Source: Nitrospinota bacterium
Lineage (GTDB): Bacteria; Nitrospinota; Nitrospinia; UBA9942; JAHJSF01
Length of the DNA stretch: 13,712 nt
Assembly (NCBI GenBank): GCA_018830405.1
Contig: JAHJSF010000143.1
Span: 1-13,712 of the forward strand
Direction of reading: 5' to 3'
In this document: positions 1-13,599 of the stretch, one piece after another
Layout: each line of letters begins with the position of its first letter
How positions within the stretch are numbered: position 1 is the first letter of the stretch
The notes under the pieces: model-generated
The model's input: only the letters and a program-made list of their open reading frames with translations
What the model was told of the DNA's origin: nothing
The model's database searches: none
Made by a program: the position numbers and the translations under genes

Positions 1-1753
<1,753 letters not shown>

Positions 1754-1800: not shown

Positions 1801-4074
1801 ATGCCTGAAGAAAAAGCGAGCACAGAAAGAGAGGGTACTGATATCTCAAGAGAGGCCGTAGCTGAACTCAAGAAGTTGGTGAAAGAGGCCGCCACGGAGA
1901 GAAAGTCTCTCCATGTGATTGTTGACTACATCGAAAAGAACAAGGATATCCTTCTGCAGCAGGAGGCTGTGCTAAAGAAGTTTGAAGAGAAGATGCCGCA
2001 GCTTGACAGGGTTATCAAAGATGTTGATTCCAAGTCAGATGACCTTAAAAATATCGATATTTCCCTCAAAGAGATTCAGCAGGCCTATTCCGAGACCAGG
2101 GGAATGATAGATTCCCACAAAAAAGAACTCGCCAATGTCAGTCTCTTAACAGAGAAGGTAAACAGTAAGATACGTTCTCTGTCACAGCAGAGGGTTTTGG
2201 TTGAGAAGGCCAACGAAGAGGCCGGACGACTTAATGTCCTCTTCTGGGATATGGAGACGAGGATAAAAAAGCTTAATGAAGAAAATAAGCTGGTCAGAAA
2301 ATCTGAAAAGAATATCGGCCGCCTTGAGGAGATGATCTCCTCCGCCAATGTGCACATGGAGGGGCTGGCCAAGTATGAGGGGACGATATCGGAGTCAGAG
2401 AAGAGGATAAAACAGATGATCGACCTTACCGGTGACCTGGAAAACAAGGTAACCAAGCTGACGAAGGAGAGGGGGGTTATAGACGGCTTCTCCCGCGATT
2501 CTCAGGCCCTAAAGGGGATGCTGGTCGGGATGGAGAAGAAGGTCGAAGAACTGACGAAACAGGGGGGCCTTGTTGAGGAGATGGGGGAAGAGATTAAAGC
2601 CCTATCTGCCGGTCTGAGTAATTTAAGGGTTGAAGCCAAGAATATCATGATGAAAGAGGATATGATAACCCGTGTCAGCAACCGTCTCAGAACTCTCGAA
2701 ACCCTCAACAATGACGTCGAGGCAAGCACTGCCCGTATCCGTGAGGAAAAAGAGATGGTTGCGGCAACAGAGGAGAGGATAAAAAGTCTCAATGCCTTCC
2801 TCGCCGACAATGTTTCCAATAAGATAGAAACCCTTAAGGATGATATGGTCTTGATTGGGGAGGCCTCGGCCAAGATAGAGGAGTTTAACGATACGATCAA
2901 GACCCTTGACTATAATACAGAGAGATTCAGGGAGGAGAACAGGCTGGCCGAGGAGGTTAGGGGGCAGCTTGAAGATATAGGGGGGCTTCACGAAGAACTT
3001 ACCAAGAGGATAGAGGAGCTCAATAAGAGGGGCGTCCTGATTGAGCAGGTGGAGAAGAAGGTCAGCGATATGGGGTCGACCATTGTCAGCCTTGATGTCA
3101 AGATAGAGGGGCAGCTTCAGAGGAAGGCCATTGTTGAGAAATTGGAGAAAAAACTCGACAGTCTCAACTACTTTATCGACGAGGCCAGTATAAAGGCCGC
3201 AAGCATTGGTCAAAAGATACACTTCTTGGAGAATGTGGATAAGAAGATGGATCAACTTAAGGATATGACCAAGCAGATAGAGGAGAAGATATTAGATACC
3301 TCCAAAGAAAGGGCCCAGATAGACGCCCAGGAGAAGAGGGTCACCCACCTATTTTCAAAACTGGACGTCATGGAGGATACATCCAATAAGAAGCTTGGGG
3401 AACTGGCCGAGGCCAATGAGCAGTTGGATATGATTTCTGCCATAAATAAGGAGCTTACCAGGACGTCCGAGGAGTTTGAAAACAGAAAATCGGCTATCGA
3501 AAAATCTGTCGATGAGATTAGACCGGTCGAAAAGAGCCTGTCGAGCCTTAATGAGAAACTTCTGGATATAGAAAAACGAACGAAAGACTTGAAGGAAGAA
3601 GACGACTTTGTTAGTATGATTGAAAAGAAAATAGAGGACTTGGGTAAAGTGGTTGGGGATGTTGACAAGAAGATGGTGGGCATACTTAACCAAGGTTCTG
3701 CAGTAGAGAGGGTTAAAGAAGAATCTCAGAGATTGGTTGCCGTTCTTGCCGATGTTAAGAGTGAGGTAGGCAAGATAGAGAAGGATAAAGAGAGGTTGGC
3801 CGCTATTACAGATAGAATCAATCAGCTTGATTCTGTTGTGGGGCAGACCGATAGTAAGATAAAGACCCTGACCGGCAAGATGGAGCTTATAGGCAAGACG
3901 GAAAAGAGGTTAAACGGTCTTGTTTCCCTTGCCGAAGAGGTTGACCTGAAGTTGAAGGCCCTTGAGGAGGAAGAGAAGGTTATCAACAGGGCCGGAGAGC
4001 AGATTGCTGAATTGCGTTTCCTTCTTGATGAGGTAGAGCATAAGGTAGGTTCCTCTGCCGAGCGGCAAAGTTAG
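1801..4074 (+). CDS. Large coiled-coil protein built of 23 31-residue repeats
   Basis: I do not recognise a named family. The 757 residues form one long, highly charged, predicted all-helical rod. It has no signal peptide, no membrane segment, no cysteine, one tryptophan (W149) and only two prolines inside the rod (P66, P575). Residues 1-29 are a short head and 748-757 a short tail. Residues 30-747 divide into 23 consecutive units of 31 residues; only two extra insertions, of 1 residue (after unit 10) and 4 residues (after unit 16), are needed. The ATG is preceded by a strong AGGAGG ribosome site at the usual spacing, so the start is firm. It follows asd by 47 bp and precedes tRNA-Asp by 19 bp. 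A structural or scaffold role (cytoskeletal filament, spacer or SMC-like rod without an ATPase) is inference. Automated annotation would probably call it a chromosome segregation ATPase, but no Walker motif is present. Confidence 0.85.
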   Translation: MPEEKASTEREGTDISREAVAELKKLVKEAATERKSLHVIVDYIEKNKDILLQQEAVLKKFEEKMPQLDRVIKDVDSKSDDLKNIDISLKEIQQAYSETRGMIDSHKKELANVSLLTEKVNSKIRSLSQQRVLVEKANEEAGRLNVLFWDMETRIKKLNEENKLVRKSEKNIGRLEEMISSANVHMEGLAKYEGTISESEKRIKQMIDLTGDLENKVTKLTKERGVIDGFSRDSQALKGMLVGMEKKVEELTKQGGLVEEMGEEIKALSAGLSNLRVEAKNIMMKEDMITRVSNRLRTLETLNNDVEASTARIREEKEMVAATEERIKSLNAFLADNVSNKIETLKDDMVLIGEASAKIEEFNDTIKTLDYNTERFREENRLAEEVRGQLEDIGGLHEELTKRIEELNKRGVLIEQVEKKVSDMGSTIVSLDVKIEGQLQRKAIVEKLEKKLDSLNYFIDEASIKAASIGQKIHFLENVDKKMDQLKDMTKQIEEKILDTSKERAQIDAQEKRVTHLFSKLDVMEDTSNKKLGELAEANEQLDMISAINKELTRTSEEFENRKSAIEKSVDEIRPVEKSLSSLNEKLLDIEKRTKDLKEEDDFVSMIEKKIEDLGKVVGDVDKKMVGILNQGSAVERVKEESQRLVAVLADVKSEVGKIEKDKERLAAITDRINQLDSVVGQTDSKIKTLTGKMELIGKTEKRLNGLVSLAEEVDLKLKALEEEEKVINRAGEQIAELRFLLDEVEHKVGSSAERQS
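1888..4041 (+). repeat. 23 tandem 31-codon (93-bp) degenerate repeats
   Basis: Aligning the protein in 31-residue blocks from residue 30 gives, in every unit, a fixed hydrophobic pattern. Position 12 is I, V or L in all units but one (A). Position 22 is always hydrophobic (mostly L). Positions 2, 5, 11, 15, 19 and 26 are usually hydrophobic. Units often begin with K/R followed by I or V, as in KIRSL, RIKKL, KVTKL, KVEEL, KIETL, RIEEL, KIKTL and KLKAL. Glycine recurs near position 10 (RGV, GGL, RGVL, GSAV). The 31-residue period equals four heptads plus three residues, so the core spacing runs 3,3,4,3,4,3,4,3,4. The units have diverged at DNA level, so the array is old rather than freshly amplified. 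Confidence 0.85.
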
Positions 4075-4214: not shown

Positions 4215-4484
4215 ATGAAGAGAGACGATATACTTGTCATTAAATGCCCCTGTTGTAATACCAACATAAGGGTAGATCTTGAGACCAGCAAGATTATTCA
4301 TGTCAGCCAAGCCAAGACCAAACTATCTATGGAAGAAATGGTTAAAGGGGTCAAGGATGGCAAGGCCAAGGTTATGAACAGATTTGAAGAGGAAAAGGAG
4401 AAACTTAAAGGGCGTAAGGATGCCTTGGATAAGCTCTTTAAAGAGTCTGTTAAAAGGGTTACCGAGGGAGAGAGTAGTGCTTAA
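4215..4484 (+). CDS. Small CPCC-motif hypothetical protein
   Basis: This 89-residue protein is not one I can name. The N-terminal part (residues 5-30) reads as a short beta-hairpin around KCPCCNTNI, with cysteines at 11, 13 and 14, resembling half of a zinc ribbon or knuckle. There is no second cysteine pair, so metal binding would need a dimer or partner. Residues 38-82 are charged and probably helical or coiled-coil. It lies between tRNA-Asp and smpB on the same strand. The ATG at 4215 has no evident Shine-Dalgarno sequence, which lowers confidence. However, no other in-frame start exists nearby, and the residue composition (K/E-rich helix, ordered N-terminal strands) looks like a real protein. 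Its stop codon directly abuts the 144-bp fold-back element. Confidence 0.65.
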   Translation: MKRDDILVIKCPCCNTNIRVDLETSKIIHVSQAKTKLSMEEMVKGVKDGKAKVMNRFEEEKEKLKGRKDALDKLFKESVKRVTEGESSA

Positions 4485-4672: not shown

Positions 4673-5128
4673 TTGTCTATAAAGATTATTTCAGACAATC
4701 GTAGAGGTTACTACGATTACTTCATCCTTGAGAAGTATGAAGCAGGGGTTGTTCTAAAAGGGAGTGAGGTTAAGTCTCTCAGAGAGGGGAGAGTTTCCCT
4801 TAAGGATAGCTATGTATCTGTCTCAGGAGATGAGGTCTATCTTTACAACTGTCATATCAACCCATATTCTCACGATAGCAGCCGCAGCGACTATGACCCC
4901 CTCAGAAAGCGAAAGCTGCTCCTTAATAAGAGGGAAATAGACGATATAGCCGGAGAGATTGCCGAAAAGGGACTTGCCGTTATTCCCCTAAAACTCTATT
5001 TCAAGAAGGGGAAGGCCAAGCTGGAGATTGCCATAGCCAAGGGGAAAAAGTTGTATGACAAGAGAGAGGCGATAAAGAAGAGAGACAGCATGAGAGAAGC
5101 TGAAAAGATAATCAAGGAGAGAAGGTAG
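4673..5128 (+). CDS. smpB: SsrA (tmRNA)-binding protein SmpB
   Basis: SmpB binds tmRNA and carries it into stalled ribosomes, so that the nascent chain is tagged for proteolysis. The 151-residue length is normal. The OB-fold core shows GVVLKGSEVKSLREGRVSL (residues 25-43), DSYV (45-48) and NCHINPY (59-65). The basic C-terminal tail contains KKLYDKREAIKKRD (125-138), which enters the decoding centre and mRNA channel. The start is TTG, with a GGGGG run about six bases upstream. An in-frame TGA lies just before it and no ATG occurs near the conserved N-terminus, so TTG is the only reasonable choice. The sspB-like gene begins at the very next base. No ssrA RNA gene is visible in the window. Translation from TTG after a fold-back element could keep expression low; that is inference. 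Confidence 0.97.
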   Translation: MSIKIISDNRRGYYDYFILEKYEAGVVLKGSEVKSLREGRVSLKDSYVSVSGDEVYLYNCHINPYSHDSSRSDYDPLRKRKLLLNKREIDDIAGEIAEKGLAVIPLKLYFKKGKAKLEIAIAKGKKLYDKREAIKKRDSMREAEKIIKERR

Positions 5129-5518
5129 GTGGATAAGAGACCGATATTCGACTGGTTTTACGAACAAGGTGATCTATATGTGACTATTATGACCACAAAC
5201 TCTCCCCTAATTAAAGTTCCCCCAGATATTATGAAAAAGAAGTTTGAAAAGCTTGTTATCGGTGAAAGCTCTACCCCGCGTCTTACTTATAACGAAGAGG
5301 GGATAAGTGTCTCAATGCGTTTTGGCCGCAAATTTGAGGATTGCTTTCTCCCCTGGGATTCTATTGTTGTTATGGAGGGGGAAGAAGCGGTAATCCAATT
5401 TGCCGTCAGCGATATTGAAGATGACCAGGTTGAGGAAGAGGGGGAAGATAGTAACGATAAAGAGAAAACCGGAGAAAAGGGGGAGAAAAAGGGGGGACAC
5501 CTTAAACTGGTTAAATAG
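5129..5518 (+). CDS. sspB: SspB-like ClpXP adaptor
   Basis: SspB is a dimeric adaptor that grips the ssrA tag and tethers the substrate to ClpX. This 129-residue protein has the SspB core at residues 4-93, with RPIFDWFYEQ resembling the E. coli RAFYEWLLDN helix, then strands around LYVTI and LIKVPP, and VSMRFGRKFEDCFLPWDSI matching the tag-groove region. A disordered acidic/charged linker (about 96-122) is followed by a C-terminal HLKLVK, the counterpart of the ClpX-binding tail (LRVVK) of E. coli SspB. The GTG start lies directly after the smpB stop with no intervening base, so it is translationally coupled to smpB. The gene is shorter than the 165-residue E. coli protein, mainly in the linker. 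The pairing with smpB joins the tagging and delivery steps. I see no strong terminator between it and the convergent DUF3108 gene. Confidence 0.85.
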   Translation: MDKRPIFDWFYEQGDLYVTIMTTNSPLIKVPPDIMKKKFEKLVIGESSTPRLTYNEEGISVSMRFGRKFEDCFLPWDSIVVMEGEEAVIQFAVSDIEDDQVEEEGEDSNDKEKTGEKGEKKGGHLKLVK

Positions 5519-8818: not shown

Positions 8819-9625
8819 CTACAAATCCTCTATAATCGCCTTTCTTTTCTGCTGATATTCTTCCTCGGTAATTATCTTTTCATCCTTCAGTTCCTGCAAA
8901 ATTTTTAACCTCTCAGTTACGTTTAAGCTCTGGGTTTTTATCTTTTCCATCTTGGTCTCTTCTTTTTCCTGCAGCCTAGCCTCCATTACCTTGTTCATGT
9001 CAAAGATGAGCCAATTATTATGTTCTGAGGTAGGTTTAGAGAAACCTTTTGATGGGTCTGAAAGAAGGCGTATAAAGTAATCGGTTGAGGATAGCCGCCG
9101 TGGGTCCTTATAATTTCGCTCCTTTTTACGGTCGTAGGGGCGTCCCATATTGCCTATTATAATTTCATAGTTAATATTTAAAAAGACGATGTTTAGTTTG
9201 CTATCCTTTACAAAGGCTATACCGTCGGTAAGGTGGTTAGTTTTACCTAGGTAACCGTCCCTTATAACGATAATCGAGAAATTTACCCATTGATTGTTGT
9301 TGGCTCTGCCCAAGGCTTCAGATAGTTGGGGGGCCAGCCTGTTGCTTTCCTCATCGTTGAATACCTTGTCTCCCTCTGACCAATTTGAAAAAACCAGTTC
9401 CTCGGTTATTATCGAATCCAGAATGTTTTTTATCTTGGCCACCTCGATTTCAGCCGGGTGGTTATATTCTCCTACTGAGGCGGCATTATTACTATATTGC
9501 TCTAACCAGACATGTTCTTCCCCTTTTTCAAATATAGGGGTATGGATAGTCCTTGAGGCACATCCGGTCAAAAGAAGCGTTAGGGTGATCAAAGAGAGAA
9601 GGCCAGCGAGTCTTTTTTTCATCAT
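8819..9625 (-). CDS. Putative lipoprotein with C-terminal SHOCT domain
   Basis: I do not recognise the main domain. From the ATG at 9625 the protein has 268 residues. It begins with KKR, a hydrophobic stretch, and the lipobox L19-T20-G21-C22, predicting lipid attachment at C22. The following alanine suits the outer membrane by the E. coli rule. Residues 30-220 are a soluble region of unknown function with several strand-rich segments (WVNFSIIVIRDGYLG, LNIVFLNINYEIII). The last 34 residues (235-268), ERLKILQELKDEKIITEEEY and onward, form a SHOCT domain, a short helical module that often ends membrane-associated or oligomeric proteins. The frame stays open upstream through tRNA-Lys, but the GGAG eight bases before this ATG plus the signal peptide fix the start here. 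It lies 44 bp downstream of tRNA-Lys on the same strand and may share its promoter. Confidence 0.8.
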   Translation of the reverse strand: MMKKRLAGLLSLITLTLLLTGCASRTIHTPIFEKGEEHVWLEQYSNNAASVGEYNHPAEIEVAKIKNILDSIITEELVFSNWSEGDKVFNDEESNRLAPQLSEALGRANNNQWVNFSIIVIRDGYLGKTNHLTDGIAFVKDSKLNIVFLNINYEIIIGNMGRPYDRKKERNYKDPRRLSSTDYFIRLLSDPSKGFSKPTSEHNNWLIFDMNKVMEARLQEKEETKMEKIKTQSLNVTERLKILQELKDEKIITEEEYQQKRKAIIEDL

Positions 9626-9669
9626 GGGAAAAACTCCAAAAAAAGTGAAAGGGTTAGGATATAATTCAG

Positions 9670-9742
9670 TGAGCCGTGCGGGGATCGAACCTGCGACAAG
9701 CTGATTAAGAGTCAGCTGCTCTACCAACTGAGCTAACGGCCC
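9670..9742 (-). tRNA. tRNA-Lys(CTT), CCA not encoded
   Basis: The 73-nt - strand sequence folds as a cloverleaf. The acceptor stem is GGGCCGT with ACGGCTC (one G-T pair), the D arm GCTC/GAGC, the anticodon stem GCTGA/TCAGC with loop CTCTTAA (anticodon CTT), and the T arm GCAGG/CCCGC around TTCGATC. The discriminator is A, followed by CTG instead of CCA. The T stem has one A-C mismatch where most bacteria have a full pair. The invariant TTC and D-loop GG are present. Confidence 0.95.
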
Positions 9743-9755
9743 AAACAATCTAAGC

Positions 9756-9784
9756 ATTCTACCAATCAATATCTTACGAGTCAA
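9756..9784 (-). promoter_or_regulatory. Strong sigma70-type promoter of tRNA-Lys
   Basis: On the - strand, TTGACT (9779-9784), a 17-bp spacer and TAGAAT (9756-9761) lie just upstream of the tRNA 5' end (9742). Five of six bases match consensus in each hexamer. This is the best promoter in the window. Confidence 0.8.
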
Positions 9785-13260: not shown

Positions 13261-13599
13261 TTATGTGCTTTTTTTAAATAATAATTTTGTTTTTTCTTGA
13301 GATAAAATCGAGAAATGGGTATCTGCAACATAAAAAAGACCACTCAAAGCATGAAAATCACGCCTTAACTCTTCAGGAATCGTACTATCTTTTTTGTAGT
13401 CAAGGTGATGTGATATTGAGGCCCATGCATCCTGAGCTATGGTTCTTATTTGAATTTCAAAAGGGATGTTTTTTATTGTTTTATCTGCCTTAGGGTCTAA
13501 TTGAGTGTTTTTTATTTTGCACTTAAGGTGAAGTGACATATAACCAAAAACATTTAACTCGGAGCTATTAATTTTAGGGTCATGACTAGAACAGCACAT
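13261..13599 (-). pseudogene. RelA/SpoT-type (p)ppGpp synthetase, C-terminal half only
   Basis: Small alarmone synthetases transfer pyrophosphate from ATP to GDP or GTP. The 112-residue frame contains the second half of the RelA_SpoT domain: FGYMSLHLK (residues 18-26), FEIQIRTIAQDAWASISHHL (47-66, with the catalytic-type E48 and IQIRT), YKKD, and the terminal helix region LRRDFHALSGLFYVADTHF. The first half, with the ATP-binding and D-AGIR-type motifs, is absent. Upstream in this frame an in-frame stop occurs within seven codons, and a transposase gene begins on the other strand at 13624. The first residues (MCCSSHDP) are probably encoded by the insertion element's end rather than by the synthetase. 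The fragment is clearly more AT-rich than pepA. It is probably non-functional unless the missing half lies beyond the insertion. Confidence 0.75.

What the first reader, a model, noticed from the sequence alone, without database searches (positions are those of the whole stretch)
1888..4041. A 23-fold, 31-residue coiled-coil repeat protein of unknown family
Cutting residues 30-747 into 31-residue blocks leaves hydrophobic residues in register in all 23 units, with only a +1 and a +4 insertion. Head and tail account exactly for the remaining 39 residues. A 31-residue period is four heptads plus three (a stammer per unit), often with glycine near position 10, which is unlike a plain heptad coil. 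If fully helical the rod would be about 107 nm (718 x 1.5 angstrom). This suggests a length-tuned molecular spacer or filament protein rather than a generic SMC-like protein.
Basis: partly seen in the sequence, partly recalled or inferred. Interest (0 to 1): 0.65.

Follow-up and report, generated by a model that had tools for sequence, protein, structure and literature searches.

The report
Fixed-length 31-residue coiled-coil rod protein
The gene makes a long rod-shaped protein, built from about twenty copies of a 31-residue unit, whose length and spacing have been kept almost unchanged across several bacterial phyla; no one appears to have described it, and it is most likely a structural beam or filament inside the cell.

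Summary
The repeat is real. ORF 1801-4074(+), 757 aa, has a lag-31 hydrophobicity autocorrelation of 0.50 (z 13.5) with peaks at 62 and 93. The count of 23 is too high: 20 units (residues 118-742) are in one register, with one extra residue near 335 and four near 522-525; residues 25-117 are helical but out of phase. Each unit has nine core layers, so hydrophobicity repeats at 31/9 = 3.445 residues per turn (one stammer per unit) with no power at 3.5; SMC arms from the same genomes peak at 3.50. The Gly-10 feature is not conserved. Orthologs occur in Nitrospinota (the host phylum) and five further phylum-level groups. Thirty aligned full-length proteins have no internal gap between residues 20 and 745. 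Conservation peaks in three places (118-179, 398-521, 712-742). NCBIfam would call it 'SpiroCoCo', but real SpiroCoCo proteins are membrane-anchored, 1300-1700 aa, carry an HTH-like tail and share only a ~250-aa 31-periodic stretch. Most likely it is a cytoplasmic, probably dimeric, fixed-length rod that assembles through spaced docking sites. Function, oligomeric state and location are inferred. No described family was found.

The parts
1801..4074 (+). Whole gene, 757 aa, all-helical rod protein, no signal peptide or TM segment seen
   Evidence: ORF; AF2 helix 17-756; ribosome-binding site 1790-1797
1846..2151 (+). N-terminal helical segment (residues 16-117), out of the common 31 phase; one shifted unit at 42-72
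2152..4026 (+). Repeat rod, residues 118-742: 20 units of 31, 31/9 periodicity
2152..2337 (+). Conserved patch 1 (residues 118-179), motif QQRxLVEKANEEAGxLNVLxWDMExK; surface nearly as conserved as core
2803..2805 (+). Single extra residue (+1) at the end of unit 304-335; a -1 nearby (residue 337) in the longer homologs of the G340 phylum
2992..3363 (+). Conserved patch 2 (residues 398-521), core motif LDxKxExQLQRKxxVEKLEKKLDGLDYFIEEAN; the best-conserved unit (429-459) starts 311 residues after patch 1
3364..3375 (+). Four extra residues (+4; residues 522-525)
3934..4026 (+). Conserved patch 3, last unit (residues 712-742), motif AGEQIxELRFLLGEVEKK running on to 747
740..1753 (+). asd directly upstream (leuB before it at 1-753); order leuB-asd-rod kept in Nitrospinia but not in other phyla, so probably not a functional link

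Best explanation
A cytoplasmic structural rod. Shown: a family-wide run of 20 31-residue units with nine core layers per unit, of fixed length, with three conserved patches that include surface positions. Inferred: two chains pair in parallel, because core positions alternate Ile/Val-rich and Leu-rich (phase 26 is 71% Leu) and one layer per unit is polar (Lys/Glu). The pair winds into a left-handed coil tighter than a heptad coil, about 0.1 micrometre long. The stammer in each unit fixes register and pairing partner. Rods then dock on one another or on a partner through the patches, which lie about 10 and 9 units apart, forming a filament or scaffold; fixed spacing would explain why almost no indels are tolerated.
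For: Repeat and register; spectral peak 3.445 in three separate thirds of the rod and none at 3.5; all-helix AF2 models; no internal gaps in 30 homologs at 27-48% identity; patches where surface positions are nearly as conserved as core positions; orthologs beyond the phylum; changing gene neighbours, as for a free-standing structural protein; no enzyme domain in Pfam or NCBIfam.
Against: No experiment. AF2 pTM is 0.20 and it was a monomer prediction, so oligomeric state, strand orientation and any folding back are untested. Charge-stagger minima do not single out a 10-unit stagger (best 241 residues). The gene is not found in some near-complete Nitrospinota genomes and is reduced to its first 11 and last ~73 residues in G010, so it is not universally needed. 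SMC arms are also nearly indel-free, so fixed length alone does not prove a filament.
Confidence: 0.45

Rival explanations
1. Molecular spacer or tether: a single rod pair holds two structures (for example envelope and nucleoid, or two complexes) at a set distance, without polymerising. The end patches bind the partners.
For: Fixed length; conserved last unit; in the G340 phylum the rod is longer by about 134 residues, all at the N-terminal end, as a changed spacer would be.
Against: The best-conserved unit is in the middle (429-459), not at an end; no membrane anchor or globular binding head at either end; no conserved neighbour gene that could encode a partner.
Confidence: 0.25
2. A spirochaete SpiroCoCo-type protein, as NCBIfam would name it: membrane-anchored coiled coil with a tail domain.
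For: NCBIfam SpiroCoCo_C 140 bits over a cut-off of 125, SpiroCoCo_N 92 over 75; the C-terminal ~250 aa of true SpiroCoCo proteins also have 31/9 periodicity.
Against: The score is a sum of overlapping stretches; single stretches reach 56 bits here against 130-352 bits in true members. True members are 1309-1693 aa, begin with a hydrophobic segment, end in an HTH-like domain, and have 3.635 periodicity over most of their length.
Confidence: 0.1
3. Nucleic-acid- or chromosome-associated coiled coil, like Leptospira Scc (filament-forming and DNA-binding) or a head-less SMC/Rad50 relative.
For: Weak Rad50 and SMC hits; Scc precedent as cited in PMC2680258.
Against: No ATPase or DNA-binding domain; period differs from SMC arms; no SMC-type genes beside it.
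Confidence: 0.1
4. An ordinary coiled coil grown by unit duplication, with no special role for the period or the length.
For: Units are recognisably repeated; coiled coils tolerate few indels in general (SMC arms 0.11 events per 100 aligned).
Against: Units are not exchanged or added within most of the family: 30 proteins from several phyla keep the same units in the same order without a gap, and surface positions are strongly conserved in defined units.
Confidence: 0.1

Closest known systems
SpiroCoCo family (NCBIfam NF047515, NF047514, NF047516), spirochaetes
   Same: Long helical protein; the C-terminal ~250 aa have the same 31/9 periodicity
   Different: Membrane segment, 1300-1700 aa, HTH-like tail, remainder at 3.635 residues per turn, no QQRxLVEKANEEAG or LQRKxxVEKLEKK motifs
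Crescentin and bacterial intermediate-filament-like proteins (FilP, coiled-coil-rich proteins)
   Same: Long cytoplasmic coiled-coil rod without enzyme domain; plausible way of working
   Different: Crescentin is a heptad coil with one stutter (PMC10873595); here a stammer recurs in every unit; no sequence relation found
SMC / Rad50 arms
   Same: Long coiled coil with strongly kept length
   Different: No ATPase heads; SMC arms peak at 3.50 residues per turn, this rod at 3.445
Leptospira Scc
   Same: Coiled-coil protein reported to form filaments (cited in PMC2680258)
   Different: Reported to bind nucleic acid; no sequence could be compared here

Membership tests
SpiroCoCo | Whole-protein HMM score over the curated cut-off | tested here: met
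   140.2 vs 125 (C), 92 vs 75 (N), but summed over several overlapping stretches
SpiroCoCo | Single continuous match over the domain, as in true members | tested here: not met
   Best stretch 56 bits here; 130-352 bits over the whole profile in G378, G092, G239
SpiroCoCo | N-terminal membrane segment and C-terminal HTH-like domain | tested here: not met
   Seen by eye in L090-L092, absent here
SpiroCoCo | ~3.635-residue periodicity in the bulk | tested here: not met
   3.445 over the whole rod here
SMC/Rad50 | ATPase head domains | tested here: not met
   No Pfam or NCBIfam head domain; matches far below the cut-offs
SMC/Rad50 | Heptad (3.5) arms | tested here: not met
   No power at 3.5; SMC arms of 10 genomes peak at 3.485-3.515
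Intermediate-filament-like (crescentin/FilP type) | Long rod without enzyme domain | tested here: met
Intermediate-filament-like (crescentin/FilP type) | Heptad rod with few breaks | tested here: not met
   One stammer in each of 20 units
Intermediate-filament-like (crescentin/FilP type) | Forms filaments without nucleotide | not testable with these tools
   Needs purified protein
Pfam Nuf2_DHR10-like | Score over gathering cut-off | tested here: met
   39.1 vs 28.4, three stretches of a generic long-helix model; not taken as evidence of kinship

The most novel reading that the evidence does not exclude
The protein is a sustained, overwound left-handed coiled coil (31 residues in 9 turns, one stammer in every unit, about 20 times over), a rod type for which I found no described example, used across several phyla as a beam of fixed length with docking sites at set distances.
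Probability: 0.4. Interest if true: 0.75.

Novelty: new variant of a known kind. Interest (0 to 1): 0.52.

Why it matters
Stammers strain a coiled coil and are rare: of known structures that depart from the heptad, the vast majority lie above 3.5 residues per turn (PMC4786415). A protein that repeats a stammer about 20 times, with almost no indels between phyla, would test how far a left-handed coil can be overwound and would give Nitrospinota, major marine nitrite oxidisers, a conserved structural protein that could be studied. It also shows that an automatic 'SpiroCoCo' label would be wrong for such proteins.

Tried and rejected
SpiroCoCo membership: rejected after reading true members. SMC/Rad50 kinship: rejected. 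Gene neighbourhood as a clue: leuB-asd-rod-mtnP-hemL-eno-ftsB in Nitrospinia, other genes elsewhere (a PBP1A gene beside it in G289, a polysaccharide deacetylase in G340, NAD(P)H-hydrate repair in G138/G279); no constant partner. Link with helical cell shape: not supported; Nitrospinae cells vary in shape (PMC8026999) and carriers could not be matched to named strains with certainty. Charge-stagger analysis: no clear 10-unit minimum. My first indel control used a wrong ORF for the SMC of one genome (G213) and overstated SMC gaps; corrected. A PHROG tape-measure hit (E 1.2e-6) I put down to helix composition. PDB sequence search: nothing better than E 0.002. Plasmid search: no match. Fold search was not run because the models are low-confidence single helices. 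No paper in the library mentions SpiroCoCo, and the 31-residue-repeat search gave only CagY and vault papers.

Full report
Observation. The ORF at 1801-4074(+) encodes 757 aa behind a strong ribosome-binding site. Its hydrophobicity autocorrelation is highest at lag 31 (r 0.50, z 13.5), then 62 and 93. A dynamic-programming fit to the family profile gives 20 units of 31 from residue 118 to 742, with one extra residue in unit 304-335 and four in unit 491-525. A leave-one-out test puts all 20 in the common phase (best of 31 phases on the family profile; 18 of 20 on this sequence alone), but not the three blocks before residue 118.

Periodicity. Core layers fall at phases 2, 6, 9, (13, usually Lys/Glu/Arg), 16, 19, 23, 26 and 30. 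That is nine turns per 31 residues with two successive spacings of three at 13-16-19: a stammer. The power spectrum has one sharp peak at 3.445 in each third of the rod and nothing at 3.5. SMC arms of ten of the same genomes peak at 3.485-3.515. Hartmann et al. (PMC4786415) state that stammers overwind the helices, that 10/3 is taken as the lower limit, and that the vast majority of known non-heptad coils lie above 3.5.

Host and relatives. Relatives of the window's genome carry Nitrospinota record titles. The protein is found in about 50 of 77 genomes of that phylum, in 18 of 24 of a second phylum (three records titled 'Nitrospinales', 'Nitrospirae' and 'bacterium' fall among them in a tree), and in four further phylum-level groups. 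The genomes of those groups are unnamed in the collection, so I do not name their phyla. No match was found in several near-complete Nitrospinota genomes, and in one (G010) only the first 11 and last ~73 residues remain, out of frame. It is therefore probably dispensable in some lineages.

Fixed length. Thirty full-length proteins (27-48% identity to this one) have no gap between residues 20 and 745. Known exceptions: -11 near residue 63 in one family; -65 near 92 and -7 near 708 in one genus; and the G340 phylum, with about 134 extra N-terminal residues and a -1/+1 pair inside, the -1 falling beside the extra residue of unit 304-335 and so restoring the 31 register there. As a yardstick, SMC arms of ten of these genomes have 0.11 gap events per 100 aligned residues (32 events in 45 pairs, 26% identity). 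The rod has none once 30 residues at each end are left out (the SMC half of that call was wrong and is replaced; with only 20 residues left out, one search counts 15 gap events for the rod, which must therefore lie within 30 residues of an end). Length is thus kept at least as strictly as in a machine whose arm length matters, though the contrast is modest.

Conserved patches. Units 118-179, 398-521 and 712-742 are better conserved than most of the rest, on the surface nearly as much as in the core. Invariant residues across 32 proteins include Q130, V134, E135, N138, G142, L144, N145, W149, D432, E436, Q438, R441, E449, K450 and L738. The two best units, 118-148 and 429-459, start 311 residues apart, that is ten units and the extra residue. 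This suggests docking sites at set distances; that is inference.

Structure. Two AF2 runs give helix throughout, with breaks at 157-163 and 451-458 in the first and only at 465-472 in the second; mean pLDDT 64-70 and pTM 0.20, so only the helical nature should be trusted. Alternation of Ile/Val-rich and Leu-rich layers and a polar layer per unit favour a parallel dimer (established coiled-coil rules, from general knowledge); not tested.

Family. NCBIfam scores it as SpiroCoCo. SpiroCoCo proteins over the cut-off fetched from three genomes are 1309-1693 aa with an N-terminal hydrophobic segment, an HTH-like C-terminus and 3.635 periodicity, and only their last ~250 aa before the tail are 31/9 periodic. 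The architecture differs, so membership is rejected; shared descent of that module is possible. No solved relative was found.

Verdict. A widely distributed and apparently undescribed family of long coiled-coil rods with an unusual, regular stammer. It probably works as a fixed-length structural rod or filament subunit in the cytoplasm; the function remains to be shown.

Noticed in passing
window 4673-5518: smpB is followed directly by an SspB-like gene (ClpXP adaptor; Pfam SspB 25.9 bits, just under the 27 cut-off): two parts of the trans-translation tag pathway side by side.
   Followed up: partly
window 4215-4484: 89-aa protein with a CPCC-type zinc-ribbon-like start and a helical tail, between tRNA-Asp and smpB; only sub-threshold hits.
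   Followed up: partly
window 8819-9784 and 9669-9742: The ORF as listed runs through the tRNA-Lys gene; the real start is probably near 9631 (MMKKRLAGLL..LTGCAS, a lipoprotein-like signal); weak SHOCT domain at its end.
   Followed up: partly
window 13261-13599: Partial RelA/SpoT synthetase-like ORF (PF04607, 38.8 bits) near the contig end.
   Followed up: partly
L068 and L070 (genus g14): In-frame loss of 65 residues removes most of conserved patch 1 of the rod: a natural deletion variant.
   Followed up: partly
L073 (G010): Remnant of the rod gene: first 11 and last ~73 codons only, asd and a methylthioadenosine-phosphorylase-like gene still on either side; could be real loss or an assembly error.
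   Followed up: partly
L090-L092 (SpiroCoCo proteins): Their bulk has a hydrophobic period of 3.635, almost that of a straight helix, switching to 31/9 in the last ~250 residues: two coil types in one protein.
   Followed up: partly
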